NCBI GenBank assembly: GCA_021234155.1
Contig: JAJEKV010000028.1
Coordinates: forward strand, 248,001-312,000
Direction of reading: 5' to 3'
From: Isoetes taiwanensis
Taxonomy: Eukaryota > Streptophyta > Lycopodiopsida > Isoetales > Isoetaceae
DNA length: 64,000 bases
Part shown: in pieces, positions 23,042 to 55,418 of the stretch
Layout of the letters: each line of letters starts with the position of its first letter
Position numbering within the stretch: the stretch's first letter is position 1
Translations under genes and position numbers: made by a program
The notes under the pieces: generated by a model
What the model was told of the DNA's origin: nothing
Seen by the model: only the letters and a program-made list of their open reading frames with translations
Database searches by the model: none

Positions 23042-23175
23042 GTACCGAGTGCCGGGAAGTCGAAATCGCAAGGGAGTTGGGTTATGGATTTTGGCCTAGA
23101 TAGGTCCTCCGTGCCAGGAACTTATCCTTCTTCAGAGTCCTAGGGTTTTGGCATAGCTCAATTGAATGTGGAGGA

Positions 23176-26100
23176 ATGGCGAGAACAAACATATCATTAG
23201 TTTTTCTGTTACTCTTTTGTTCTTTCGTCCAGATCTCGTCTGCTAAGAGATTCGTGCTTGTTCTTGACGATGAAGATGGCACTGATGAAAATCAGGATCG
23301 TCCAGCGTTGGATGATTTGTCTGTGGTTGAGAAGGGGGATGAAATCCCAGCTCCTTCTGAGGGTCAGGAGGTACCAGATTCTGAGGGATTTATTGATCCT
23401 GATGACAGCGAGCATCCCTACTTGTATTCCAGTTCCTCGTGGCAGGATATTCTGGAAGGCGCAGGAACTGAAGAAAAGTTTGGAGAAACATACACAGATG
23501 CAGTAAAAAGAATGTTTGGTGCTATTAGTGAAGGAGATCCGGACAATTTAGCAGATGCAATCAAGGATATCAAAGGAGCAGCAGATTTAGGGCATCCACA
23601 TGCCCAATCCACGTTTGGCTTCCTTCATGGGAGCGGTTATGGTATGGAGCAGAATGAATTGAAATCCTTTCTATATCATAGTTTCGCTGCAAATGGAGGT
23701 GATTACCAGTCCAAAATGGCTCTAGCATACAGTTACTTTAGACAGCAGGTACTTCACGTCATGTTTTTTCATAGCTAACATAAGGAACCAATGGGCAGAG
23801 TACTTGCTCTCTTGCTTATGTTGTGATCGTCGCCCCAATTTTGCTTTTAACTGTCCTGCAACCAGTTCTGAAGCTTAAGCAACACCTAGGTCTTGTATTT
23901 GGAAGATAGTAGTAGGGTACTAGGACAGGGTTATATTGCTTAGTAAGCATGTTTTTTATTTGAAAAGTTGCTAAATGTTTTTAAAGCATTCAACAATTTT
24001 ACATTGACATATTGGGATATTGCCAGATTCTTGCATTGCTATGTCATCTAACTTTAAGCAGCTTGGCATTGCATTATGTACCATTGCTGTTCAGTTTGTT
24101 GGGACAGTACTATTATTATGCAAAGCAAGGCTGCATGTCTGTCTCCAAATTACAGTCTTAAGTCAATTGTGAAATGACTTTTTGGGCACAAGTTCAAGAA
24201 GTAATTATTCTATAAAGAGCATCTCTACCTCATAGTCGTCATTGAAGGGATCTTCAGATTTGCTGGGGTGAGGAGTAAGGGGCGGTTATTCTTATGGGGA
24301 AGGCCACCCATAATTGACATACACCATGCAAGAAGCAGTTCTCGGTGTTATTGTATGTTGTGCCAAAAGGTTTGGTGCTTGTAGTTGGTAATTATTGTTA
24401 CTCCCCTGGGATACTAGGTACCTGGTCCATCATTTTCCATGTTCTCCATCCATGTTCTGGTTCTTGTTGTGGAAGTATCCAGAGGAATTAATGTCCGCAT
24501 AATGGAGTGTTTGAGAATATTAAGTTTCCTTTGTGAGGGCTTTTCAGTCCTTGCCTTAATTAGATGCAGATTTGTTAGTCCTTCCTTACCAACCGGAAAC
24601 TATGCAGATGTACGACAAGTCAGTGGATTTGTATGCGGAGCTTGCAACTACAGCTGTGGCGAGTTTTATGACTTCTAAAGACAGCCCCCTGATGGAGGCA
24701 GTCCGTCTTAACATTGGCGCTGAAGAAAATAAGGACGCTCTTAAGAAATTTCGTGGTGAAGAAGACGATGACTTCCAGTTTTTGGAGTATCAGGCACAGA
24801 AGGGTCACTCAAAAGCAATGTACAAAATTGGGCTTTTATACTACTTTGGTTTAAGAGGTCTAAGACGGGATCATGCAAAAGCATTATCATGGTTTCTTAA
24901 AGCTACGGAGAAAGGCGACGTGGTTTCTCTTGAATTTCTAGGGGAAATATATGCTTGGGGTTATGGCGTCGAGAGGAACTACACAAAGGCATACGAATAC
25001 TTCCGGAAGGCTCTACGCGAAAAAATATTCTCCGCATACAACGGACTTGGCTACCTTTATTTGAAGGGACTTGGAGTCGACAAGCAGAATTTTACAATGG
25101 TAACTTCTTAGGTTGTTTCTCTGTAAAGCGTTTACCTGATATAATTATAAATGGACACTTTAAAAATAAGATCATCATAACTGGCATCCATCTCTTCTGA
25201 TGGTTGCAATCCCATCAAACATTATTGTTGGTTATGGAATTCTCCTTGATTGTGAGATCATTGTTTACAATGTTGTCACAGGCAAAGGTGATAAACACTT
25301 GGCTTTACAACAATGAAGTACGATAAGAACATACTTGGTTGAAGTGCTTGCTGCAGAGGATATGGATTAGCTAAGCTTTTAATTTGATCTAAGATTTAAC
25401 AGATGTAAAAAAAGGCTCAATAACACTTTTAGTATGATATTAAACAGACAAGAAAAGAATAGCATTTGTGTATTTTGTTTTAACATTTGATATTGTTTAC
25501 AATTTCTTTCAGGCAAAAGAGTTCTTTAAGAAGGCCAAAGAGCATGATGACCCAAATGGCATCTATAATTTGGGGGTGCTTTCATTAAAGGGGATTGGTG
25601 TAAAAAAAAACATTAAACTGGCAAGCAGGCACTTCCTCATTGCTGCTAACGCAGGGCATACGAAGGCATATTATCAACTTGCACAAATGGCGCAGAAAGG
25701 TGTTGGACTGAAAAAGAACCTAGCAGTGGTAATGTTACTAGACACAGGAGCCTTAATTATTGAGATGATGCATCAGAGTTTATTTTGGTTGTGAACGCTG
25801 TTGATTGTGCATCCTTACTAAAGAAGGAATTGAAAGGAGTTGTGATCTTTCTTTCATCAATCCTGCTAGAGCTGGAATAGATCACGTTATAAAACTATGG
25901 GCTTTCTTTCATCAATCCTGCTGGAGCGGAATAGTACGTAATTGGCTGAACTTATAAAGGTCTAAGAGAAGGTTGATCTAATTATTTATTGTGAAGAACT
26001 GTGTCGGAAGAGAGTAGAATTTGCTTTTTAGTTAGGCCAAGAGCAGTAAGTAGATAATTGATTGCTGATTGATATATACAGTTTCCAAGTTCAAGCCCCT

Positions 26101-27294
26101 GTATGGTAGAGAGGCTGAAAACTCTTCACACTTAAACTTGTTATTGGTGTGCTGCATATAGTTGGGTGCTAATCAGAAGCTGTTTTAACAAGAACCCAGC
26201 ATAGTTTTTTAGATAACCTTTCTGAATAAAATCTGTATACCTTCAGTTTTGTTTTTCGAAGTTTTGAGAAGAGTTCTATTCTAACGTGTGCATTCCCAAT
26301 TGTAGGCAGCACAGCTATATAAGATTGTAGCAGAAAGGGGTCCATGGGGTTCATTATTGCGATGGGGCTTGGAGTATTACTTGAAAGGTGACTATGCTTC
26401 GTCACTTTTGCTATATTCGAGTGCTGCAGAACTAGGATATGAAGTAGCACAGAGTAATGCAGCCTGGATTTTAGACAAGTACAAAGATGAAGCCACTTGC
26501 ATAGGGCAGTCAGGCTTTTGCACAGACACTGAGAGGTATCAGCGTGCTCACAAATTTTGGCGGCATGCATCAGAGCAGGGTAATGAGTATGCTGCCCTCC
26601 TTATTGGAGATGCATATTATTATGGTCAGGTATGCGTCTGAAGCAAACCACGAGAAGTTTGTGTTTATTGTAAAGAAACAAATCAATCATTTGATGTTTC
26701 AAACTATTGGCTTCATTTTTCTTCTGTGTTTGCAGGGTATTGGGAAGGATTTGGAACGAGCTGCTGAAGCTTATGCTCGTGCTCGTTTGCAACAAAATGC
26801 TCAGGCCATGTTTAACTTGGGATACATGTATGAGCATGGGCTTGGTCTCCCTGTAGATTATCATTTAGCCAAACGGTATTATGATGAAGCTGTTGAGACA
26901 GATCCAGCTGCGGGAGTGCCAGTTTCCTTAGCTCTAATGGGTCTTTGGCTGCGTCAGCATTACCAAAATAGTTCTTTGGTAAATATACCCCCGTCTTACA
27001 TTATGATTTAAGTGTTTGGAAATGTTTTGCACCTTAGACGCTAAAATCAAGGTCATGCATTGTGTTTTAGTAAATAATTTGAATATTGTTGCCCGTGTCT
27101 TTGAACAGGTAAAAGCTATTGACATGCTTCCCGAGTGGACATCAAAGAGCAGAAGCTGGTTACAAAACATTTCAATGGGAGAAGGCAATGCTACACTGTT
27201 CACGCTGATTGTCTGCTTATTCACAGTTTTATACTTTCGTCAACGACACAGGCGCATTGCTGTACAAGCCATTCAACAAAATAGAGTTGAATGA
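23176..27294 (+). CDS. HRD3: HRD3/SEL1L homologue, ER-associated degradation receptor, six exons
   Basis: The six exons are 23176-23748, 24608-25099, 25513-25728, 26306-26629, 26736-26978 and 27109-27294. All have GT-AG borders and phase-0 junctions, and they encode 677 residues, the usual length for plant HRD3A. Residues 1-23 form a signal peptide ([17 protein letters not shown]). An acidic region follows, then many Sel1-like repeats from about residue 95 to 600 (motifs such as [23 protein letters not shown], shortened here, and [13 protein letters not shown]). A single membrane span lies near residues 643-659 before a basic RQRHRR tail. This gives a type I ER membrane protein with a lumenal repeat domain. 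In the family it partners the HRD1 ubiquitin ligase and recruits misfolded glycoproteins for ERAD. No defect is visible. The start ATG directly precedes the signal peptide. Confidence 0.96.
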
Positions 27295-35592: not shown

Positions 35593-36648
35593 GCCATTAG
35601 CCATTCTTGTCCCTATCTAAACTATATGTGCCAAGAATTTGACTAATGAACCCTAACTATGTATATTTAGGTTAGATTTATGTGATATTCTGTTATTTCG
35701 ATTCATATGGTTCTATAATGTATGATCTGTTCACATTCCTGTGTATTGGGAAGGGGGTAGAGACCCAAACCTTAGTAGATATGACCCTAGATTAGCCTCA
35801 TTAACTCCCAATTAATGCGGCCTGTGCATAAGAGCCCGCCTGCGCTGTGGGTGGAGGGGCCAAACCGGCTGACAAGGGGGAACTTGTCCGATGGCAGTTG
35901 ATCCCTCTGGTGTGTAAAGCCTACCGGAAAACATTGCGGACTAGGCCTAATACCTTATGCACTGCGTGTGACTCTGGTATGGGCTCGACACCTCTTGGGT
36001 GGTGAGGCCACCTTCAATGGGGTTGAAGTCATAGACAAGCAGTGGCTCTCTGACTGCCTATCATTGGCATGTGTCCTCTGGAGGAGAGAGTGATCCCCTC
36101 CTGCCTCATCGGGACTGAGGAGATGCAACCCTAGAGTAGCCCCTTTGGTTATGCCTCCAGCAGGCTACGGTCCAGTCCCAAAGCTTATCAGCTTATCTGC
36201 AAAGTATGCACAGGAGGGGCGGATGGAGTGGACTACCCAACGACCGTGCTCTACGCCAGCCAAATCCATTTGCCATGAATTCTATCTGCTTTGACCTCTG
36301 GAGACCCCAAGCCGTCAGTCAAACCTTGAGTCTGAGCCTTGGATAGGATGTGCCATTGCTGTCTATGTTATTATGATGATAGCTCATGTTGTTATGGTGA
36401 TCTCCACCCTTCGTGGTGGTTATATGTATTATTTGTTGTTATGTACTTATGTCACACGCTTCCACATTGCTAGATGATCCCAAGGGGGGCGGGGTAAATG
36501 ACACGTCCAGTCCTCCCACGTAGGATTCCCGCCCACCATCGGGAATCCCACGTTAGATGGGCAACCTCTCGATGGTAGCATAGCTAAAGAAGGGAAATCT
36601 CCAGTTTGTGTATGATGGGAGTATCATATATGAACGAGGGACATTACA
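35593..36648 (+). repeat. 5' LTR, truncated
   Basis: About 1056 bp collinear with 44679-46278 of the 3' LTR (outside the inserted MITE), from GCCATTAGCCATTCTTGTCC to the terminal ACATTACA. The first roughly 498 bp of the LTR are absent, so the U3 promoter is missing. Sequence upstream of 35593 shows no LTR similarity. Confidence 0.85.
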
Positions 36649-36649
36649 A

Positions 36650-36661
36650 TGATATCAGAGC
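36650..36661 (+). other. Primer binding site (initiator tRNA-Met)
   Basis: TGATATCAGAGC lies just inside the 5' LTR and differs by one base from TGGTATCAGAGC, the complement of the 3' end of plant initiator methionine tRNA. Confidence 0.8.
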
Positions 36662-36823
36662 AGTGATCTTGATTGACCAAGATCGATAGCACTAACTATT
36701 CTAGAATTCAGTCTTGGAGTTAAAAACCCAAGCAAGAACCTCGAAAATGGGGAGAAAATTTTTGCCCCACAATAGGAGTATTAGCTAGTTAGTTATAGTT
36801 AAAAGTTACCTAGAAACAACTTT

Positions 36824-36897
36824 CAGTAGTTCGAGAATGCGCTAGAGCACATTAGGATTATTCTAATACCCTTCTGGCGCACTTTCAAATTACTCAA
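36824..36897 (+). repeat. Palindromic ~75-bp element, copy 1 (upstream of H3-like gene)
   Basis: The left arm AGTAGTTCGAGAATGCGC is imperfectly complementary to the right arm GGCGCACTTTCAAATTACTC. The loop contains CATTAGGATTATTCTAAT and CCCTTCTG. It is one of four related elements in the retrotransposon, about 200 bp before copy 2. Confidence 0.75.
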
Positions 36898-37022
36898 CCC
36901 TAGTTGGCAATAAAACTTAAGTCCAAAGATAAAAAGAAGAATCAATTATAGCTTAAGATTAAGTTTGAAGCTAGGATATCACAGTAGAATTACCAATGGA
37001 TAAATATCTTAAACAAACCATC

Positions 37023-37098
37023 CAGTAATTTGAGAATGCACGAGGACACCATTAGGATTATCCTAATGCCCTTCTGGCGCATTTTCAAAGTACTCAAA
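37023..37098 (+). repeat. Palindromic ~75-bp element, copy 2 (upstream of H3-like gene)
   Basis: The arms AGTAATTTGAGAATGCAC and GGCGCATTTTCAAAGTACTC flank a loop with CATTAGGATTATCCTAAT and GCCCTTCTG. It lies about 110 bp upstream of the TATA box at 37207. Confidence 0.75.
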
Positions 37099-37206
37099 CC
37101 CAAAATGTCCTAAAGAATTAAGGTATTTGAAGCTACCAAACTCTAATTATTTAAGAAATTAGGTAATACCATTTTCCCATGCCAAACCCTAAAAATTTCC
37201 CAATCC

Positions 37207-37214
37207 TATAAATA
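37207..37214 (+). promoter_or_regulatory. TATA box of the H3-like gene
   Basis: TATAAATA lies 111 bp upstream of the ATG at 37318, in a pyrimidine-rich leader context. It is an internal promoter separate from that of the LTR. Confidence 0.6.
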
Positions 37215-37317
37215 GGGACCTCGACCTATCATAAGTTAGGGTTTCAACTTCAATTCTTGCTCTCCGCTCTTGAGGCGACTTTTAGGTGCCTGACCTCCGA
37301 TTCGAGAGATTCCGCAC

Positions 37318-38473
37318 ATGACCCGCACCAAACAGATGGCAAGGGAGATGACTCTTCTAGAATCTGCACGCGCCTAGGTCCACGCCTATGAGCAAAAGCT
37401 CGAGCGCTTTAAAGCAAAGAACAAAGACACCACCAACGGAGAAGAAGGCTAGACGTCTAAGAAACCTAGAGCGTGCAGAGAAGCAAGCAGTGAAAGAGAA
37501 AAAGGAGAGAGGAGAGACAAAAGAGGAAGGAAGAGAGGCATATGGAGCGAAGGACGAAAAACAGAGAGGAAATGAAGGGAAAAGGCAAGGAAGTAGAAGA
37601 GCACGAACAGGACGGACAAGCCTAGCCGCGCAGAAAGACTAAGACTATGCCGAAGAAATAGAAGATGTTGGGGAGGGGGGGAGATCATTATCATACAGCG
37701 GGAACCAAACAATGAAACCACCCCTCCAAAATCTGAGTTTGGCACAGATTTGAAGTTGAAAATCGCTCGTCGCCTATCCCATCGGAATTACATATAAGAG
37801 GGATCTTTGGGAGCGGGCAAGTCGTCCAGGGATCTTGAGGAAACCGACACGTCGGATGAAGAGCCCGAGAAACTAGAGGAACAACACATACCTGCACATG
37901 AGTCACTGGTCCCACCGTTCCCCGTGTGGAAGCCCATCCCCAACAAACAAAAGAAATCGCTAAAAACAGCGCGGGAGTCCTATGTTTTGTCCCATAGGGA
38001 ATACAGGAAGCAGCTAGCTGCTTATCAGGCCTCCATGAAGATGTATCAGGCCTATAAGAAGTACTATGATGCTCATAGGATACGATACATCGAGGAAGGC
38101 AAACCCGCGAAAGAGCAGGCCGTCTTGAAGCCTCCACCAGAGACACTACCTGAGGCACCGAAGAAGCCGATGAAGCGGAGAAGAGACTTAGTCTTCTCAA
38201 GGGCTGCTAAAGAAATTCGGCATTTTCAGCGAAGCTACGGCTTCCTAATACCACGAGCACCATTTGCGAGGCTTGTCAAGGAGATAATGGACGAGTTCGT
38301 CACAGAATTCAGAGTGACCAACGATATGCTGATGGGCAGCAAACACGGAGTTGGTACAGAACTTCGAAGACTCCTCGAGCCGATGCCGCATCTCCTCGAG
38401 CCGATGCCGCATCTGTGGTAGGGCAAAGCCTTTTGGGGCGCGTGTCGGAGATATGATTCAAGCCGGTCGATAA
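37318..38473 (+). pseudogene. Histone H3-like protein encoded by the retrotransposon (broken)
   Basis: The frame starting at 37318 opens with MTRTKQMAREMT, matching the canonical H3 tail at R2, T3, K4, Q5, A7, R8 and T11, with K9 replaced by E. A long charged, KE/KR-rich stretch follows, with stops at 37375, 37450, 37573, 37594 and 37795 and a possible frame change (an open lysine-rich frame +2 at 37388-37642). From 37807 the first frame is open again. It has a helical segment, a KKP motif at 38161-38169 like H3 K36-K37-P38, then KEIRHFQRS, FLIPRAPFARLVKEI and MDEFVTEFR. About 44 residues align to H3 47-90 without gaps, with 19 identities by my count. One extra G in the run at 38334-38336 shifts the frame; the second frame then carries ELVQNFED and a GDMIQAGR end, resembling H3 helices 2-3, to TAA at 38471. 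A 21-bp duplication lies within. Presumed role: chromatin or packaging. Confidence 0.85.
38371..38412 (+). repeat. 21-bp tandem duplication inside the H3-like gene
   Basis: CTCCTCGAGCCGATGCCGCA plus T is repeated exactly twice in the helix 2-3 region. Being a multiple of three it keeps the frame, adding seven codons between ELVQNFED and the C-terminal helix. Confidence 0.9.
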
Positions 38474-38850
38474 CTGGTAGTCCCTGGAAAACTTCCCCTA
38501 AGCTTGATTTTGTCTTCTAAAAGCTTATGAACAAGCATGGATGTGCTTGACTCACACCAACTCTAAGAGCTGATGGGTGGCAAGAAGTAAATCATATCTA
38601 TTCTACTCCGACTAATGTTATTTTTTGGCCTGTGCTCTACACGCAAAGAGGGTGACTCTAACGAACAAAGACTTAGCATTGTCGAGGTTCATCAAGAGAA
38701 CGAATAGATAATAGAATTAACAAGTCATGTAAGCAGAACCTTTTGATAAATATAAGTTATGATGTGTTATAATGTCTCTACAATTGTTAATTTGTACCTA
38801 GGTGTAATTTGTTTCCTACAAAACAAATAAATCTAGACCAAAACGATACC

Positions 38851-38922
38851 CAATAGTCCGAGAATGCACGACAACTACATTTGGATTGTCCAAATTGCCC
38901 TCTGCGCATTCTCAGACTACTC
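38851..38922 (+). repeat. Palindromic element, copy 3 (upstream of second ORF unit)
   Basis: The arms AATAGTCCGAGAATGCAC and TGCGCATTCTCAGACTACTC are strongly complementary. The loop contains CATTTGGATTGTCCAAATTG. Confidence 0.75.
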
Positions 38923-39054
38923 GCCCATAGTTTACCTAATTTTAAGTACCTAAACCATAAAGTAAGACCAGATTTGAGCACCACTACTCGAGCAGAGTAG
39001 AATTATGTTATCATATCACCAGTTTGTCGAAGTATCAAACCCAAAACAAGGTCC

Positions 39055-39128
39055 AAAAATCTGAAAATGTGCGAGAGCACCATTAGAAGGATCCAAATGC
39101 CCTCCTGTCGCATTCTCAGATTACTCAA
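39055..39128 (+). repeat. Palindromic element, copy 4 (upstream of second ORF unit)
   Basis: The arms AATCTGAAAATGTGCGAG and GTCGCATTCTCAGATTACTC flank a loop with CATTAGAAGGATCCAAATGC. Copy 3 to copy 4 spacing (about 205 bp) equals copy 1 to copy 2 spacing (about 200 bp). Confidence 0.75.
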
Positions 39129-39304
39129 ATTTCAAAGGCCAATAACTTGACCATACCAGTCCTAAATCACATGAAATTTGTTGCATTAGGACCTTTAGAC
39201 AGTCATCTACACATATAAAATATCAAACGGACATAGGAACAACCAAAGCAACCTAAATGGACCAAAGTGCCATAACCCTAAAATTTGAAAAATTAGGGTT
39301 TGTC

Positions 39305-39312
39305 TATAAATG
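39305..39312 (+). promoter_or_regulatory. TATA box of the second internal unit
   Basis: TATAAATG lies 129 bp upstream of an ATG at 39434. Its leader shares a GAGGCGCTTTTAGAT-like motif with the leader of the H3-like gene (GAGGCGACTTTTAGGT). Confidence 0.5.
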
Positions 39313-39433
39313 GAAGCATAATCCCCCCTCCCCCCCATATTTGCACTTCATCAATTGCTCCTGCTTCGAGGCAATTTTTCAGCTCCCAGAGGCGCTTTTA
39401 GATCTGTTCGACATCCCCAGCTTCAGCTCCAAC

Positions 39434-40206
39434 ATGGCTACTAAATCCTTCATCACTTGATATAGCGCCTCACCTCACGATGTTAACCTAGTTTTCAATG
39501 TATTCCAGAAAGAGTTTGATTTAGCGACCACTCTAGCAGCAAACCCTTTCTGTCAACAAAGCTTGCAAGAATTCCAGACCAAATTAGGACCCCACTTGCA
39601 AGAAGTCCCTCCGTGCATAGGATACTTTGTACCTAAGCTTGCCCTCGAGGAAGCACTGAGTCGTGTATCTAGCATCAAGGCCAAGCTGAACAATAGAGCT
39701 AAACGCTTTCCAGATTATATGACCATAACCTATAGGAGGAGAAGATACTTCTCCTATAATGCAAGCCTTGCATTATAGCTTCACTATAAGGCCGAAATAG
39801 TGTTGGGGGAACCCTCCATTCATCCATGAACGTAGAGCCTCTCGACTCTACCACAGAAGAGTGCATGCTCTTACAGTATGGCCAACCTCAGCAGTCGGAC
39901 GAAGAGGAGGAAGAACAAGAAGATGAAGAAGATGTCAAAGATCTAATACAGGAGGACCCAGAGGAGGATAGGTTAGAGGCCGAAGAGTGTGACCCTTCCT
40001 TCGACCGGGATCTTCAAATACAGAGAGTAGCACCACCTTTGGACCTTGGCATTACCAGCTTGGCCCCAATAATGGTGGAAGGACAGGAGTATCTCCTCTT
40101 GAATGATATCAAGAATTTTCAGAGTGTCGGGACAGGAAATACTGTACAGATGAACTCCTACAATTGCTTCAACAACAAGAAGACATTGACAACATCACGA
40201 CCGTGA
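39434..40206 (+). pseudogene. Second internal ORF unit of the chromovirus, possible diverged gag (broken)
   Basis: An ATG at 39434 (MATKSFIT, then a stop) continues in the same frame with a helix-rich segment, including FNVFQKEFDLATTLAANPF and LALEEALSRVSSIKAKLNNR, to a stop at 39776-39778. A shifted frame at 39826-40206 encodes a very acidic segment (QSDEEEEEQEDEEDV) and LDLGITSLAPIMVEGQEYLL. It sits where gag would normally precede pol, but there is no CCHC zinc knuckle. I do not recognise the product. Stops and a frame change show that it is decayed. It has its own TATA box and a pair of palindromic elements, like the H3-like gene. Confidence 0.45.
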
Positions 40207-40550
40207 AACCCAAGAATTCCCTGTCCACATTCGTGAAGCAAAGACGAATACAGGCAAAACAGTAACAAACATAGAAGCCAATAGCGCCATCAGAAGTATG
40301 ATTCCAGCCGAAGATCCAATAACAGATGAGGAGTTCGTAGCTCTTCAGGAATGAATGGAATCAGAGCCAAGACCACAAATGTCTTAATGCCAAGCTCTTC
40401 ATCGGCAACAGCAACGACTAGATATGTGGGACGGTCAGTCAGCTTGAATAGCAACCGATCACTCAGAACTGACTATGAGCACATGATGACCATACCAGTG
40501 GATGAATATGCATCCAGGCACAAGGAGACAATGGGTCCACGAACAGACAG

Positions 40551-43476
40551 GTGGCAAAGGGCATCTGCACTATAGAAACCACTAGTATAGACTCAAGCAA
40601 GGAAAAAGAAGATAAGACCTTGAGCAACTTACCTAAGTCAGTGGCTAAATTAATAAAGGAATTCCATGATATTTTTCCTGATGGGATCAAACAGCTCTCA
40701 CCCTATAGGGGAGTAGAGTGTGAAATAGCACTTGAACCAGGGACAAAGCCAACCAGTAAAGCCCCCTATAAAATGACAAGTCATGAGCTAACGGAGTTGA
40801 AGAAATAGTTACAAAAGCTTTTAGACATAGGGTTTACAAGACCTAGTGTCTCTCCATTCTGGGCACCAATACTATTTGTTAAAAAGAAAGATGGTAGTTT
40901 GAGAATGTGCATAGACTACTGTCAGTTGAACAAGCACACCATAAAAAATAAGTATGCCTTACCCAGAGCGGACGATTTAATGGACCAACTCCAAGGGGCG
41001 AAAGTCTTCTCCAAGATAGACCTCAGGCCAGGTTATCACCAGATTAGGATCAAGGAAGAAGACGTCCACAAGACTTTTCAGGACGAGGTATGGCCACTAT
41101 GAATTTACAGTCATGCCCTTCGGACTATCTAATGCCCCCACAACATTCATGAGACTCATAAATGATATATTCCGAGAGTTTCTCAATGAATTCGTTATCA
41201 TATTCTTCGATGACATTCTAATATACAGTAAAACTCTAGAAGAGCACATCAAACACTTGAGAAGAGCCTTAGAGAAGCTAAGAAGACATAGCTATACGCA
41301 AAGTTGAGTAAGTCTCTTTGCGACAACTAGAGTTGAGTATTTGGGGCATGTCATCTCAATGGAATGAATTTCAACAGATCCAACAAAGATTCAAGCAATA
41401 ATAGAATGGCCGACTCTGAAAAATGTGCATGAGATAAGAAGCTTCCTTGGCTTGGCAGGCTATTACAGAAAGTTTGTCAAGAACTTTGCCAAAGTAGTTG
41501 CACCATTGACGGGCCTTACAAGGGCAGGGACGATTAAAGACTGGGCAAAACATTGGCAAAATAAGGCGCAACACAGTTTTGACAAACAAAAGGAGGCTTT
41601 GACAACATCCCCAGTCTTAACATTGCCGGATCTACAAAAAGACAAGTTGGTAGCAACAGATGCAAGCAAAAGTGCGACCGGAGCCGTTTTAATGCAAGAA
41701 GACAGAGTAGTCGCATATGACTCTAAGAAAATGAACGATGCCGAGACATGCTACCCAACTCAGGACCAAGAGCTTCTAACTATTGTCAGAACCCTGAGGG
41801 TCTGGAGACACTATCTGTTGGGAAGAAGATTCCAATTAGATACAGACCATCAAAGTCTCTAGTACATTTTCACCAAAACATACCTCAATTTGAGGCAGAG
41901 AAGATGGATGGAGTTCCTGGAAGAGTATGATTTTGAAATCATGTACAAACTAGGTAAGCTTAACGTAGTTGCTGATGCTCTTTCAAGGCATCCCCTCACC
42001 AGAAGAGTCTATTGTAATGCCATATCAAAACTCACCATTGAGTTTGGCAAGAAGATTGAGGAGACCTTGCCGACAGATAAAGACTTCCAAGAAGTATGGG
42101 CAAGCCTCTCTAAGGAGGCAAAAATAGGTAAGGAGAGAGCGACCTTCAAGAATGATAAGAAAGAGGGTAATCTCCTATATCATAATTACAAGTTATGCGT
42201 ACCTGAGTCATCGGAGTTAGGAAGTTGATACTCCACGACACGCATAACAGTCCAATTGTCGGCCACGCAGGATTTATGAAGATATACTTCAAAATCAGAA
42301 GTAGCTATTATTGGCCAGGCATGAAGAAGCAAATTGCAAGGTACACGCGAGAGTGCCAGATATGTCAGCAAGCTAAAGCAGAGCAACTTCGAATTCCCAG
42401 AGTCTTGCAACCGTTGCCAGTTCCAAACGCCAAATGGGAAGTGGTAACCATGGACTTCATAACAGAGATGCCAAGAACACAACGAGGGCATGATGTCTTA
42501 ATGGTAGTAGTGGACAAGTTGTCCAAAATGGCTCACTTTGTGCCATGTAAAACTATCGATATAACTTTGGATACAGTAGCGCATTTTGCGAAGGAGATTT
42601 TCGGACACCATAGAATGCCAAGAGAGATCATCTTCGATAGGGACTCGAAGTTCACGACTGGCTTTTGGCAAAGACTTGTTCACCACGATCGGCACCAAGC
42701 TTTCCATGAGTTTGGCACATCATCCCCAAACGGATGGGCAGACGGAGCGCACCAATCGCATCTTGGAAGATATGTTGAAGACACATGTGTGGAATAAGCA
42801 GTCAAAATGGGGTGACTATCTCCACTTGGTTGAATTTGCTTAAAACAATACCAAGCAAGCATCATCACAGATGTCCCCCTTCATGATCAATTATAGTTAT
42901 CGGTGCCTCACTCCGGATACTTGGCACAACCCAGTGTTAAAAGTAGAAGTGTCTCAACAAATGTTGGCAGACATGCAAGAGTTGGTTGATGAAGTGCAGG
43001 TATCTTCTGGCTGCAAGAAGCCGTCAGAAGGTGCTAGCTGACAAGCACAGATCCGTCAGAGATTTCGAAGTGAACAACAATGTTTGGCTAAAAATAAAAG
43101 TCAAACAAGCAAGCTTCGCATCAGCACATGCAAGAAGCTTGCTCCAAGATGGGCAGACCATTTAAAATAATCAAAAGAGTAGGGGACCAAGCCTACAACT
43201 TGGAATTATCAGCCCGTCTCAAAATCCATAACATTTTCCACGTAAGTTTCTGAAGAAGCACACTCTGAATCCGGAGGAAGTATTGGACACTCCGATATTG
43301 TTGGAATTAATCGATAAACAATTTGAGATTGTCCCGGAAGTTCTTCTTCAAAGGGCATTTAAGAAGACAAGAATGTCTCAATTTACCCAATACTTGGTCA
43401 AGTAGACACATTTATCTGTGGAAGATGCTACATGGCTACTACAAACAGATCTGAGAAAGCAGTATCCACAATTCTG
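40551..43476 (+). pseudogene. pol: Chromovirus pol: reverse transcriptase, RNase H, integrase, chromodomain (broken)
   Basis: RT is seen from 40.6 kb: [63 protein letters not shown], and catalytic FFDD in [13 protein letters not shown]. RNase H follows ([37 protein letters not shown]). Integrase has an HHCC zinc region (GHAGFMKIYF, CQICQQAK), the DDE core (TMDFITEMP, FDRDSKFTTGFW, HPQTDGQTERTNR) and a C-terminal chromodomain at about 43331-43476 (VPEVLLQRAFKKTRMSQF, QYLVK, DATWLLQTDL). Lesions include a TAG at 40807, a single-base frameshift near 41081, a stop at 41860, frameshifts near 42220 and 42670, a stop at 42841, and a TAG at 43403 where the chromodomain has a conserved Trp. The order is typical of Ty3/gypsy chromoviruses. 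Confidence 0.92.
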
Positions 43477-44167
43477 AGAGCAATGCAAGGGATAGCTCGT
43501 CACCGAATTAGACGATACCGACACCATAGGTGGATGGAGGATAGATTAACAGTATACTTCCGATGCTACAAAAGTAGACAGCCTTGAGAGATAAGAGGTC
43601 ATATAGGATCATGCATGATAGGAAAGCACCCTAGTCTATGGCCATTATGGGGAATAAGCCACCCCTATGCCAAGGGTGACGAAAGGTGTAGGCATTAGAC
43701 ATCATCTGAGGCATGATAGGGTGTTGTCGCCACAGCCACGATGGAAGAATCATTCTCTTCCTGCGCGGGGAGATTAGTCATGCATACATTTAGTTAATAT
43801 AATTCCCTATAAACCAACCTCATTAGCTAACAAGTGTGACTTGAACTCGAGGAGTGGGCAAGGAGTCACACGACAAGACTTGTGACAAGTAATGATGTGT
43901 TCATAAGCCGCAAGGGAATAGTTAAGTCTACAACAAACTCTCGTGTGAAAAAAATTGTTATAATTATTATGTCCTAGTCGAAGACAATTAAAATGAATTG
44001 TTATTGATTTGATTACTATATCATTTGACAATTAGATTTGAAGTATGATATGATTAAGTAATAATCTCTAAATATTACTTAAAATGCATGCCTATGAATA
44101 TATTCTTGCAGGGACAATGCAAGGCTCAAGGGGAGGAGATCTATGATGCTGCGGACAACATGAATAC
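43477..44167 (+). other. Chromovirus 3' internal non-coding region
   Basis: About 690 bp between the end of pol and the polypurine tract. I see no coding capacity or repeat structure. Confidence 0.5.
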
Positions 44168-44180
44168 AAGGGGGGGAGAA
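44168..44180 (+). other. Polypurine tract
   Basis: AAGGGGGGGAGAA directly precedes the TGTGACG start of the 3' LTR. It would prime plus-strand synthesis. Confidence 0.85.
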
Positions 44181-46278
44181 TGTGACGTTCCAGGATAATA
44201 TATGGTATAACTACATATATTATACTCGCCACATCACTAGTACATGCCGTAGGTACGATATGTACACGTTAGCCAGTATAGATTCCCCATGGGGACGCAA
44301 CCCGTAGACCCCAATATATATTGCACATATTGCAACATGTGAATATATTAAACTGACTGCCACTTGGCACAACCCCATTGACTTGACCTTTCATTCCCAA
44401 CCCTAAATGAGTGCCCTAAAAAGTACCCTTTCTATAAAAGGGGCTACCATAAAGCGAGCCCTTTTTGGCTACTTCGTGATCAGTGCCCAGCATCAGCAGG
44501 TCGCCCTCCAGTAGCAGACATCTCAGCTACCTTGGGATTTGCGTCCAACAGGTCGCCTTCAGCAACCTCAAGTCTGCCAGCAGCCACTTCGATCACTACC
44601 ATGGACGCTCTCAGAGGAAGAATGCCCGGCAGCCAAGGATCTGGTAGGTGCCACCTACCTTGTTTAATTCTTAGACCAGCCATTAGCCATTCTTGTCCCT
44701 ATCTAAACCATAGATGCCAAGAATTGACTAATGAACCCTAACTATGTATATTTAGGTTAGATTTATGTGATATTCTATTATTTCAATTCATATGGTTCTA
44801 TAATTTATGATATGTTCACACTCTTGTGTATTGGGAAGGGGGGTAGAGACCCAAGCCTTAGTAGATATAATCCTAGATTAGCCTCATTAACTCCCAATCA
44901 ATGCGGCCTATGCATAAGAGCCCGCCTGCGCTGTGGATGGAGGGGCCAGAGTGGCTGACAAGGGGGTACTTCTCCGATGGTAGTTGATCCCTCTGGTGTG
45001 TAAAGCCTACTGGGGAACATTGCGGACTAGGCCTAATACCTTATGCACTGCATGTGGCTCTGGTATGGGCTCGACACCTCTTGGGTGATGAGGCCACCTT
45101 CAATGGGGTTGAAGTCGTAGACGAGCAGTGGCTCTCTAATCTGCCTGTCATTGGCATGTGTCCTCTAAAGAAGAGAGTGATCCCCTCCTGTCTCATCGGG
45201 ACTGGGGAGATGCAACCCAGGAGTAGCCCCCTTGGCTATGCTTCTGGCAGGCTACGGTCCGGTCCCAAAGCTTATCTGCCTATCTGCAAAGTATGCATAG
45301 GAGGGGCGGATGGAGTGGACTACACAACGACCATGTTCCACGCCAGCCAAATCCATTTGCCATGAATTCTGTCTGCTTTGACCTCTGGAGACCCTAAGCC
45401 GTCAGTCAAACCTTGAGTTTGGGTAGGATGTGTCATTGTTATCTATGTTATTATGATGATAGCTCATGTTGTTATGGTGATCTCCACCCTTCGGGGTGGT
45501 TATATGTATTATCATTAGGGATTTTTTGAGATCATAAAAGTGCCTTCTAAGAACTGCTGACTAAGTAATATAAACTACCAATCAGAAAACAGAACTGGTT
45601 ATCCAGTCAGCAAAACAGTTATAACTAACTCACCGGATCACATTTTCTAACATAAGTGTTGATAGAAAAGTCCAAATGAGCTTTTGTTTGGTGCAATAGA
45701 TAGATCTCATTGAGATCTTTCCAACCTTGGGTGATTTGCATATCTTTTAGCCCCGTAGGATAGTAAAAAAATGGTAAAAACCATATTTTTTGAAGTTTTG
45801 ACAATCATAAGTGGTTAAAATATGTGCAAAGCACCAAGGTTGGAAAGATCTCAACGAGATCTATCTATTGCACTAAACGAGAGATCATTTGGACTTTTCT
45901 ATCAACAGTTATGCTAGAAAATGTGATCCAGTGAGTTAGTTATAACAGTTTTGCTGACTGGACCCGTCAGGCTCTGATTTCTGATTGGTAGTTCATTTAT
46001 CTTCATTTGACTTAGTTGGCATGTTTTGAAGGCCCTTTTTTAATCTCAAAAAAACCCTAATGTTGTTGTTATGTACTTATGTCACACGCTTCCACATTAC
46101 TAGGTGATCCCCGGGGAGACGGGATAAATGACATGTCCAGTCCTTCCAAGTAGGATCCCTACCCACCATTGGGAATCCCACGTTAGATGGGCGGCCTCTC
46201 GATGGTAGCATAGCCAAAGAGGGGGAATCTCCAGTTCCTGTACGATGGGAGTATCGTATATGAACGGGGGACGTCACA
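44181..46278 (+). repeat. 3' LTR, complete but with a nested MITE
   Basis: It starts TGTGACGT and ends ACGTCACA (inverted termini). A U3 TATA box, TATAAAA, lies at 44433-44439. Without the MITE the LTR is about 1.55 kb. The part from 44679 matches the 5' LTR with scattered substitutions, so the insertion is not recent. Confidence 0.88.
45514..46061. mobile_element. Foldback MITE nested in the 3' LTR
   Basis: This 548-bp insertion is absent from the 5' LTR, where the sequence runs through GTATTATTTGTTGTTATG. Almost its whole length is an inverted repeat: the left end ATTAGGGATTTTTTGAGATC mirrors the right end TCTCAAAAAAACCCTAAT. Internal blocks such as TTGGAAAGATCTCAACGAGA also pair. The target-site duplication is not clear, so the superfamily is left open. 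A transcript through it would form a very long hairpin. Confidence 0.85.
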
Positions 46279-54599: not shown

Positions 54600-55418
54600 A
54601 ATGTGGTGTTACATGTCGTGATAGATGTGGTGATGCAAATGGTGCATGTGGTGAATCATGTGGTCCATTTGGTGAACCATGTGGTGAATCATGTGGTGAA
54701 TCGTAGGTGGCATGTTGGAGCTTACGTGGCATGTTTGACTTTCATTGACCAACATGTTTGGTGATGCAAATGGTGCATGTGGTGAATCATGAGGTGCATT
54801 TGGTGAATCATGTGGTGAATCATGTGGTGCATCGTAGGTGGCATGTTGGAGCTTACGTGGCATGTTTGAGCCACCTTGGCATGTTGGAGCCTAGGTGGCA
54901 TATTTGAGCCACCTTGGCATGCTTGAGCCTTTACATGACCTTTGTTACATGTTTGACTTTCATTGACCAACATGTTTGGTGATGCAAATGGTGCATGTGG
55001 TGAATCATGAGGTGCATTTGGTGAATCATGTGGTGAATCATGTGGTGCATCGTAGGTGGCATGTTGGAGCTTACGTGGCATGTTTGAGCCACCTTGGCAT
55101 GTTGGAGCCTAGGTGGCATATTTGAGCCACCTTGGCATGCTTGAGCCTTTACATGACCTTTGTTACATGTTTGACTTTCATTGACCAACATGTTTGGTGA
55201 TGCAAATGGTGCATGTGGTGAATCATGAGGTGCATTTGGTGAATCATGTGGTGAATCATGTGGTGCATCGTGAGGTGGCATGTTGGAGCTTACGTGGCAT
55301 GTTTGAGCCACCTTGGCATGTTGGAGCCTAGGTGGCATATTTGAGCCACCTTGGCATGCTTGAGCCTTTACATGACCTTGGTGAATCATGTGGTGCATCG
55401 TAGGTGGCATGTTGGAGC
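54600..55418. repeat. 218-bp tandem repeat (about 3.5 units) built of shorter GTGGTGAATCAT motifs
   Basis: The anchor ATGTTTGACTTTCATTGACC occurs at 54731, 54949 and 55167, exactly 218 bp apart. Each unit contains runs of GTGGTGAATCATG and GTGGCATGTTGGAGC-type submotifs with TTGAGCCACCTTGGCATG. The first unit lacks an internal ~100-bp segment, and the last is truncated before the TA microsatellite. The units are nearly identical, so the amplification is recent. Long minus-strand frames here are by-products. Confidence 0.92.

What the first reader, a model, noticed from the sequence alone, without database searches (positions are those of the whole stretch)
37318..38473. A Ty3/gypsy chromovirus carrying a histone H3-like gene
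The sequence shows an H3-type N-terminal tail start (MTRTKQMAREMT), a KKP motif, and a 44-residue stretch aligning to H3 residues 47-90 with no gap and about 19 identities (KEIRHFQRS, PFARLVKEI). After one inserted G, a second frame resembles H3 helices 2-3 and ends near the expected C terminus. All of this lies between the primer binding site and pol of an LTR retrotransposon. I know of no described plant retroelement family with its own H3. Possible roles are packaging of element DNA, marking the integration site, or competing with host H3.
Basis: partly seen in the sequence, partly recalled or inferred. Interest (0 to 1): 0.95.

Follow-up and report, generated by a model that had tools for sequence, protein, structure and literature searches.

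The report
Retrotransposon family with its own histone
In a large plant-type genome, a big family of jumping genes carries its own version of histone H3, the protein that DNA is wound around, and natural selection has kept that gene working, which suggests that the elements may shape the host's chromatin with a histone of their own.

Summary
The window holds a decayed chromovirus with an H3-like ORF between PBS and pol (37318-38711): Pfam Histone E=7e-11. Its C-terminal helix lies further on (38625-38708; E=4e-4), beyond a ~250-nt interruption. It is a family trait: in the 1.66-Gb host assembly 150 of 6459 first-look candidates were scored, and all 150 match at E<=1.3e-38. Twelve of 20 fetched copies are open to the C terminus, 388-431 aa: H3 tail start ARTKQTAR (exact in 9 of 12), a long charged insert, an H3 fold. 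Their profile matches H3 without gaps over 91 residues, E=4e-30. Layout: LTR-PBS-ORF1(H3)-ORF2(unknown)-gag-PR-pol with chromodomain. The fold is under purifying selection (median dN/dS 0.038, 22 pairs). One copy has both LTRs, PBS, PPT and matching 5-bp flanks. Five further ORFs carry an H3 fold 84-89% identical to host H3 behind another N-terminal domain; two of five were checked for element context, each with partial support. I infer that the protein enters nucleosomes; its benefit is unproven. Nine literature searches listed no described example.

The parts
35593..36648 (+). 5' LTR remnant (first ~500 nt lost)
   Evidence: 92% identical to 3' LTR, K2P 0.086 over 1049 sites; start point
36650..36661 (+). 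primer binding site, TGATATCAGAGC, one mismatch to the TGGTATCAGAGC seen in relatives
36821..37100 (+). upstream module of ORF1 with two palindromes of ~70 nt
   Evidence: local alignment of the upstream regions of ORF1 and ORF2 scores 80.5 against a maximum of 24 in 200 shuffles; palindromes; weak support as RNA structure, covariation term not favourable
37207..37213 (+). TATA-box-like sequence at -111 from the ORF1 ATG
   Evidence: sequence; TATA at -109 to -112 in 10 of 11 relatives tested
37318..38711 (+). ORF1, decayed H3-like gene (stops, frameshifts, one interruption)
37318..37353 (+). H3 tail start MTRTKQMAREMT
38197..38377 (+). histone fold, aN to a2 (frame change within a2)
38378..38624 (+). 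interruption of unknown nature (old intron, insertion or rearrangement; holds a 21-nt tandem duplication)
   Evidence: absent from the open relatives
38625..38708 (+). histone fold, L2-a3 and C terminus
38848..39130 (+). upstream module of ORF2, homologous to that of ORF1
   Evidence: K2P 0.57 to the ORF1 module over 277 sites, against 0.086 for the LTRs
39434..40542 (+). ORF2 remnant (unknown protein, ~540-aa open frame in relatives)
   Evidence: tblastn with ORF2 of L027/L018; no Pfam hit for the two window pieces
40506..42225 (+). pol: reverse transcriptase and RNase H pieces
   Evidence: PF00078, PF17919, PF17917
42207..43250 (+). pol: integrase pieces
   Evidence: PF17921, PF24626 over cut-off; PF00665 E=1e-4, below cut-off
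43277..43474 (+). decayed chromodomain-like stretch
   Evidence: no Chromo hit in this copy's pieces; the homologue in L033 hits PF00385 E=2e-10
44168..44180 (+). polypurine tract
   Evidence: sequence; similar context in L031 and L032
44181..46278 (+). 3' LTR (ends TGTGACGT...ACGTCACA) with a ~550-nt insert at 45513-46062

Best explanation
Shown: a large Ty3/gypsy chromovirus family carries, upstream of gag, an accessory ORF1 that encodes a divergent histone H3 with the start of the H3 tail, a long charged insert and a complete H3 fold, held by purifying selection. Inferred (about 0.65): the protein pairs with host H4 and is built into nucleosomes, because many residues kept across copies are nucleosome contacts. 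Inferred (about 0.35, the most likely single role): it is placed on the element's own DNA and, with its altered tail, weakens silencing of new copies.
For: 150 of 150 scored genome places at E<=1.3e-38. In 20 sampled loci, 13 have a PBS upstream, 17 an ORF2 and 14 a gag match downstream, and each of the 20 has at least one of these. Gag, weak zinc-knuckle and protease matches in L027, chromodomain in L033. LTR pair with matching 5-bp flanks ACATC in the L017 element, K2P 0.058. dN/dS: histone fold median 0.038 (22 pairs), whole ORF1 0.112 (17 pairs), against gag core 0.07 (3 pairs). A1, R2, K4, T6 and R8 of the tail are kept in 12 of 12 copies, each with two to four different codons; T3, Q5, A7 in 11 of 12; K9 in 9 of 12. 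K115, R116, V117, T118, C110, H113 and L126 are kept in 12 of 12, D123 and R83 in 11 of 12 (contact roles and choice of positions recalled). TATA at -109 to -112 in 10 of 11 copies.
Against: No expression, protein or chromatin data. Several contacts depart from H3: R63 is P or S and R129 is Y, F, S or H in 12 of 12; R72 is kept in 9, R49 in 10, R52 in 9 of 12. The dN/dS copies were chosen for open frames. Three of 20 loci (L021, L022, L026) gave neither ORF2 nor gag match with the queries used. The single-sequence model of the window piece is poor (pLDDT 56), and no structure of an open copy was made. All copies come from one genome. Nothing here tests silencing.
Confidence: 0.6

Rival explanations
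1. Integration targeting: nucleosomes containing the element's H3 mark places in the genome, and the integrase chromodomain reads them (perhaps through K9), steering new copies there.
For: Chromodomain present in the one integrase end scanned whole; K9 kept in 9 of 12 copies and K4 in 12 of 12.
Against: K9 is replaced in 3 of 12 copies (L010, L012, L022); the listed places lie on many contigs with no obvious clustering (by eye, not tested).
Confidence: 0.22
2. Packaging: the ORF1 protein compacts or protects element cDNA in the particle or pre-integration complex.
For: Highly charged, lysine-rich insert and conserved DNA-contact residues.
Against: Conservation of the H3-H3 and L2 contacts and of the tail start is more than a DNA packer needs; a gag with a weak zinc-knuckle match is present already.
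Confidence: 0.15
3. Decoy or histone mimic: the ARTKQTAR tail titrates host readers and writers of H3K4/K9.
For: Tail residues conserved through synonymous change.
Against: The histone fold is more constrained than the insert, so more than the tail is under selection; the tail alone is too short for a dN/dS of its own.
Confidence: 0.1
4. Single-copy accident: a host H3 gene or pseudogene landed in this one element.
For: Single decayed copy in the window.
Against: upstream modules (K2P 0.57) far older than the LTR pair (0.086).
Confidence: 0.01

Closest known systems
Plant chromoviruses (Ty3/gypsy with integrase chromodomain)
   Same: LTR, PBS, gag-PR-RT-RNaseH-IN-chromodomain
   Different: Two extra ORFs upstream of gag, the first a histone H3
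Plant LTR elements with additional ORFs (PMC7264820, passages; PMC11963269, passages)
   Same: Conserved extra ORF in many copies
   Different: Those reviewed lie mostly between pol and 3' LTR; 'histone' occurs 0 times in the main text of both
Phalaenopsis Gypsy elements with an AlkB-type RNA demethylase (PMC9289625, abstract, section 12, passages)
   Same: Host-derived functional domain fixed in a Gypsy lineage
   Different: Enzyme, not a histone; its screen of 121 angiosperm genomes kept 15 domains, and the text I read names nine of them, no histone among these; the figure with all 15 is not held
Histones of DNA viruses (PMC9145170, passages)
   Same: Viral genomes encoding core histones, some with long extra tails or N-terminal parts
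   Different: DNA viruses; 'retro' occurs 0 times in the main text of that review
CENH3-guided integration in Arabidopsis (title seen in a reference list; paper not held)
   Same: Retroelement and H3-variant chromatin connected
   Different: By its title the H3 variant there is the host's

Membership tests
Chromovirus (Ty3/gypsy) | Gag, PR, RT, RNase H, integrase of Ty3 type | tested here: met
   Pfam hits in the window pieces (RT, RNase H, integrase), L027 and L014 (gag, PR), L033 (integrase); not all in one copy
Chromovirus (Ty3/gypsy) | Chromodomain at the integrase C terminus | tested here: met
   PF00385 E=2.1e-10 in L033; the window's own pieces gave no hit
Chromovirus (Ty3/gypsy) | LTR pair, PBS, PPT, 5-bp target duplication | tested here: met
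   L017 with L031. LTR pairs found in two of four attempts; the L009 pair has no matching flanks and extra LTR-like hits; no duplication in the window copy, its 5' LTR is truncated
Chromovirus (Ty3/gypsy) | RT phylogeny within a named clade (CRM, Tekay, Reina, Galadriel, Tcn1) | not tested
   no reference set to hand
Histone H3 family | Core histone fold over the family cut-off | tested here: met
   PF00125 67-90 bits in 5 of 5 class I ORFs scanned, cut-off 26.4
Histone H3 family | H3 rather than H4/H2A/H2B: aN helix, tail ARTKQTAR, HAKRVT L2 | tested here: met
Histone H3 family | Assembly with H4 into nucleosomes | not testable with these tools
   contact residues partly kept
CENH3 (centromeric H3) | Lengthened loop 1 | tested here: not met
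   gapless over loop 1 against H3; the recalled Arabidopsis CENH3 needs a 2-residue insert
CENH3 (centromeric H3) | Closer to CENH3 than to H3 | tested here: not met
   profile scores recalled H3 104 bits, recalled HTR12 85 bits; the best 60 of 175 PDB matches are H3. The decayed window piece alone had scored CENP-A homologues slightly above H3, 33.7 against 33.0 bits and less
Ogre/Tat type with ORF upstream of gag | Non-chromovirus integrase, without chromodomain | tested here: not met
   chromodomain present

The most novel reading that the evidence does not exclude
A whole chromovirus lineage has made itself a chromatin-coding parasite. It carries H3 genes acquired at least twice: class I with the ARTKQTAR tail and a diverged fold, class II with a near-canonical fold on a new N-terminal domain. 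It builds element-specific nucleosomes that mark its own copies, so the host genome carries a parasite-made histone variant system with possibly thousands of genes.
Probability: 0.4. Interest if true: 0.98.

Novelty: new variant of a known kind. Interest (0 to 1): 0.94.

Why it matters
Core histones encoded by viruses have been described for DNA viruses; my searches listed no description for a retroelement. A retrotransposon family that maintains its own H3 under selection would be a direct handle on how transposons and host chromatin contend: whether an element can write its own nucleosomes, escape silencing or choose its landing sites with a histone variant. It also warns annotators that an 'H3 gene' in a large plant genome may belong to a transposon.

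Tried and rejected
Chance similarity: rejected. Single-copy insertion: rejected. CENH3 capture: I first read the LIPxAPF motif as CENH3-like, and the window piece alone scored CENP-A homologues marginally best; loop-1 length and profile scores of the open copies speak for H3 instead. Intron reading of 38378-38627: no canonical splice sites seen by eye, and the open copies have no such stretch; left open. Protein database: no relative of ORF1 at E<=0.01 among 343 and 143 candidates; the integrase control gave 439 proteins at E<=1e-10, and the 120 listed are 41-52% identical, so that database seems to hold no close kin of this element and its silence says little. Viral contigs: no relative in three scans. 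AlphaFold of the window piece: weak; no fold search was made on it. Two of four LTR pairs were not found in the fetched tails; no LTR match between the two flanks of the class II locus L036. Genome-wide search with a class II protein: not answered.

Full report
WHAT IS IN THE WINDOW. The window is G000:C1032:248001-312000 of an unnamed 1.66-Gb assembly. At 35593-46278 lies an old, damaged Ty3/gypsy element: a truncated 5' LTR (35593-36648), a PBS at 36650, a polypurine tract at ~44168 and a 3' LTR at 44181-46278 carrying a ~550-nt insert. The LTRs differ by K2P 0.086 over 1049 sites, 71 transitions to 13 transversions. Between PBS and pol lies the H3-like gene.

THE H3 GENE. ORF 37807-38418 hits Pfam Histone at E=7.2e-11, above the curated cut-off, and solved H3/CENP-A chains at 4e-7 to 2e-6 (best 60 of 172). 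The start MTRTKQMAREMT has 8 of 12 identities to H3; of 2990 ATGs in the window the next best has 5. Across the aligned blocks 39 of 82 residues equal H3. The copy has three in-frame stops in 337 pooled codons; neutral decay since insertion predicts 1.2 (P of three or more 0.11), a shuffled sequence 16. Frameshifts come on top. So the gene was probably about intact when this copy inserted.

FAMILY TRAIT. A search of the window's own genome gave 6459 first-look candidates; 150 were scored and all 150 match at E<=1.3e-38. By my hand count of that table 34 places are reported with open frames of at least 400 aa (the tool's figure; in one of them, L015, my own reading found a stop inside). I fetched 20 of the 150 with flanks, chosen mostly for long open frames plus the window's nearest kin (L023-L025). 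In oriented loci, 13 of 20 have a PBS (at most two mismatches) within 1.4 kb upstream of ORF1, 17 of 20 an ORF2 match and 14 of 20 a gag match downstream; each of the 20 has at least one of the three, and L021, L022 and L026 have the PBS only. In L027 the frame after ORF2 holds Retrotrans_gag (E=7e-16), Ty3_capsid, protease and a weak zinc knuckle (E=0.02). The integrase end of the L017 element (L033) holds H2C2, rve, SH3_Tf2-1 and a chromodomain (PF00385, E=2e-10). The L017 element has both LTRs (K2P 0.058), PBS, PPT and matching 5-bp flanks ACATC. L009 also has an LTR pair (0.057) but no matching flanks and further LTR-like hits, so its site may be rearranged. For L027 and L014 no LTR match was found in the fetched tails. 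Thus, at least in L017, ORF1 moved as part of the element. The window copy matches ORF1 and ORF2 but not gag-PR.

THE PROTEIN. Twelve of the 20 are open from the tail start to the C terminus, 388-431 aa (L022 has ACG in place of ATG). Left out of the twelve: L015, L021 and L023-L028, whose frames are broken, start late or end early. Eleven were aligned (L019 left out). Layout: ARTKQTAR(K), a charged insert of roughly 290-330 aa ending in a conserved block with KPPPE and PPKKP motifs, then the H3 fold. The profile hits solved H3 at E=4e-30 with 91 residues aligned without a gap; the 60 best of 175 matches are H3, not CENP-A. Against the recalled H3 the profile scores 104 bits, against recalled Arabidopsis CENH3 85 bits with a 2-residue insert in loop 1. 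So it is an H3 rather than a CENH3.

SELECTION. Nei-Gojobori dN/dS over those of the 66 pairs with dS 0.03-1.0 in the region: whole ORF1 median 0.112 (17 pairs, 0.088-0.278), histone fold 0.038 (22 pairs, 0.02-0.27), insert 0.134 (15 pairs, 0.097-0.28). Comparators by the same method: ORF2 0.178 (3 pairs), gag core 0.07 (3 pairs). Choice of open copies biases this downward, but pairs with dS 0.6-0.95 and dN 0.02-0.03 in the fold are hard to get that way. Tail: A1, R2, K4, T6, R8 in 12 of 12; T3, Q5, A7 in 11 of 12; the eight residues are exact in 9 of 12; A1, R2, T3, A7 and R8 use three or four codons; K9 in 9 of 12. Fold, at 25 positions that I chose: R69, E94, E97, E105, D106, C110, H113, K115, R116, V117, T118, L126 as in H3 in 12 of 12; R83, D123 and K122 in 11; R49 in 10; R52 and R72 in 9; K64 is R in 12; R63 is P (11) or S (1); R129 is never R; K56 is R or Q; S86 and S87 differ in all. 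The contact roles of these residues are recalled from nucleosome structures.

OWN CONTROL REGIONS. ORF1 and ORF2 are preceded by homologous modules with two palindromes each; as RNA structure the palindromes have little support (2 of 24 pairs with a double change, covariation term not favourable). In the window their divergence (K2P 0.57) is far above that of the LTRs, so the arrangement is older than the insertion. The two upstream regions align above all 100 shuffles in 11 of 11 relatives tested, and 10 of 11 have a TATA motif at -109 to -112 of the ORF1 start (L010 at -157). I read this as separate transcription of ORF1, inferred only. The leaders downstream of the modules are only weakly alike (7 of 1000 shuffles reach the score).

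A SECOND CLASS. The Histone family search of the same genome gave 8705 first-look candidates; 150 were scored, all over the cut-off. The top 15 cover the profile from position 2; two fetched ones (L039, L040) are identical ordinary H3. Five of the others that I fetched (L034-L038) are open frames of 459-485 aa with an H3 fold at or near the C terminus, 82-85 of 97 residues identical to a typed H3 stretch and 73-77 of 87 to host H3, behind a different ~350-aa N-terminal part without Pfam match; L038 runs on ~25 residues past the H3 end. Context was looked at for two of the five. L036 has a PBS after an LTR-like CA end ~710 nt upstream of its ATG (L042), but no match to ORF2 or gag-PR of L027 in the 5 kb downstream (L041) and no LTR match between its flanks; its downstream frames resemble those of L043 by eye only. 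Downstream of L037 (L043) lie matches to ORF2 (E=5e-9) and gag-PR (33% identity, E=2e-58). So membership in the same kind of element is likely, not complete. dN/dS of the histone part is 0.05-0.08 in six pairs; the four pairs with L037 are saturated. In a small unrooted tree of 19 histone folds class I is split from the rest (97) and class II groups with host H3 (96). This suggests separate captures or re-capture; with 87 sites it is weak. What the other 130 scored places are is not tested.

MECHANISM. Shown: a selected, element-borne H3. Inferred: because the fold is constrained most, with many DNA, H3-H3 and L2 contacts kept, a nucleosomal role with host H4 is likelier than a pure decoy or packer. 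Its use may be to keep element chromatin open, to mark landing sites for the chromodomain integrase, or to protect cDNA; I rank them in that order with low confidence.

NOVELTY. Nine full-text searches (listings only, and for only part of the matching papers was listed) listed no retroelement encoding a core histone. Seen further: passages of PMC7264820, PMC11963269, PMC6317226, PMC13317346, PMC8603533, PMC9145170; abstract, one section and passages of PMC9289625. The library's own description says that most subscription papers and bioRxiv preprints are not held, so priority is not proven.

Noticed in passing
L027:5250-6869; window 39434-40542: ORF2, a conserved ~500-aa protein between the H3 gene and gag, matches no Pfam family over its cut-off and no solved structure (best E 0.19); dN/dS ~0.18 over 3 pairs.
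   Followed up: partly
L034-L038: ORFs with an H3 fold 84-89% identical to host H3 fused to a new ~350-aa N-terminal domain (MPRFKLTVDLKK... in three, variants in two); function unknown.
   Followed up: partly
window 36821-37100 and 38848-39130: Paired ~70-nt palindromes upstream of both ORF1 and ORF2; could be protein-binding sites.
   Followed up: partly
window 38378-38624: ~250-nt interruption inside the histone fold of this copy, with a 21-nt tandem duplication; absent from the open copies.
   Followed up: partly
window 23104-27011: Exons of a Sel1-repeat gene (Pfam Sel1 E=1e-20 at 24560-25108), resembling plant HRD3 by recall.
   Followed up: no
window 45513-46062: ~550-nt insert in the 3' LTR with long inverted arms by eye; looks like a small DNA transposon.
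   Followed up: no
window 54730-55379: Three 218-nt tandem units at 99% next to a long AT microsatellite.
   Followed up: no
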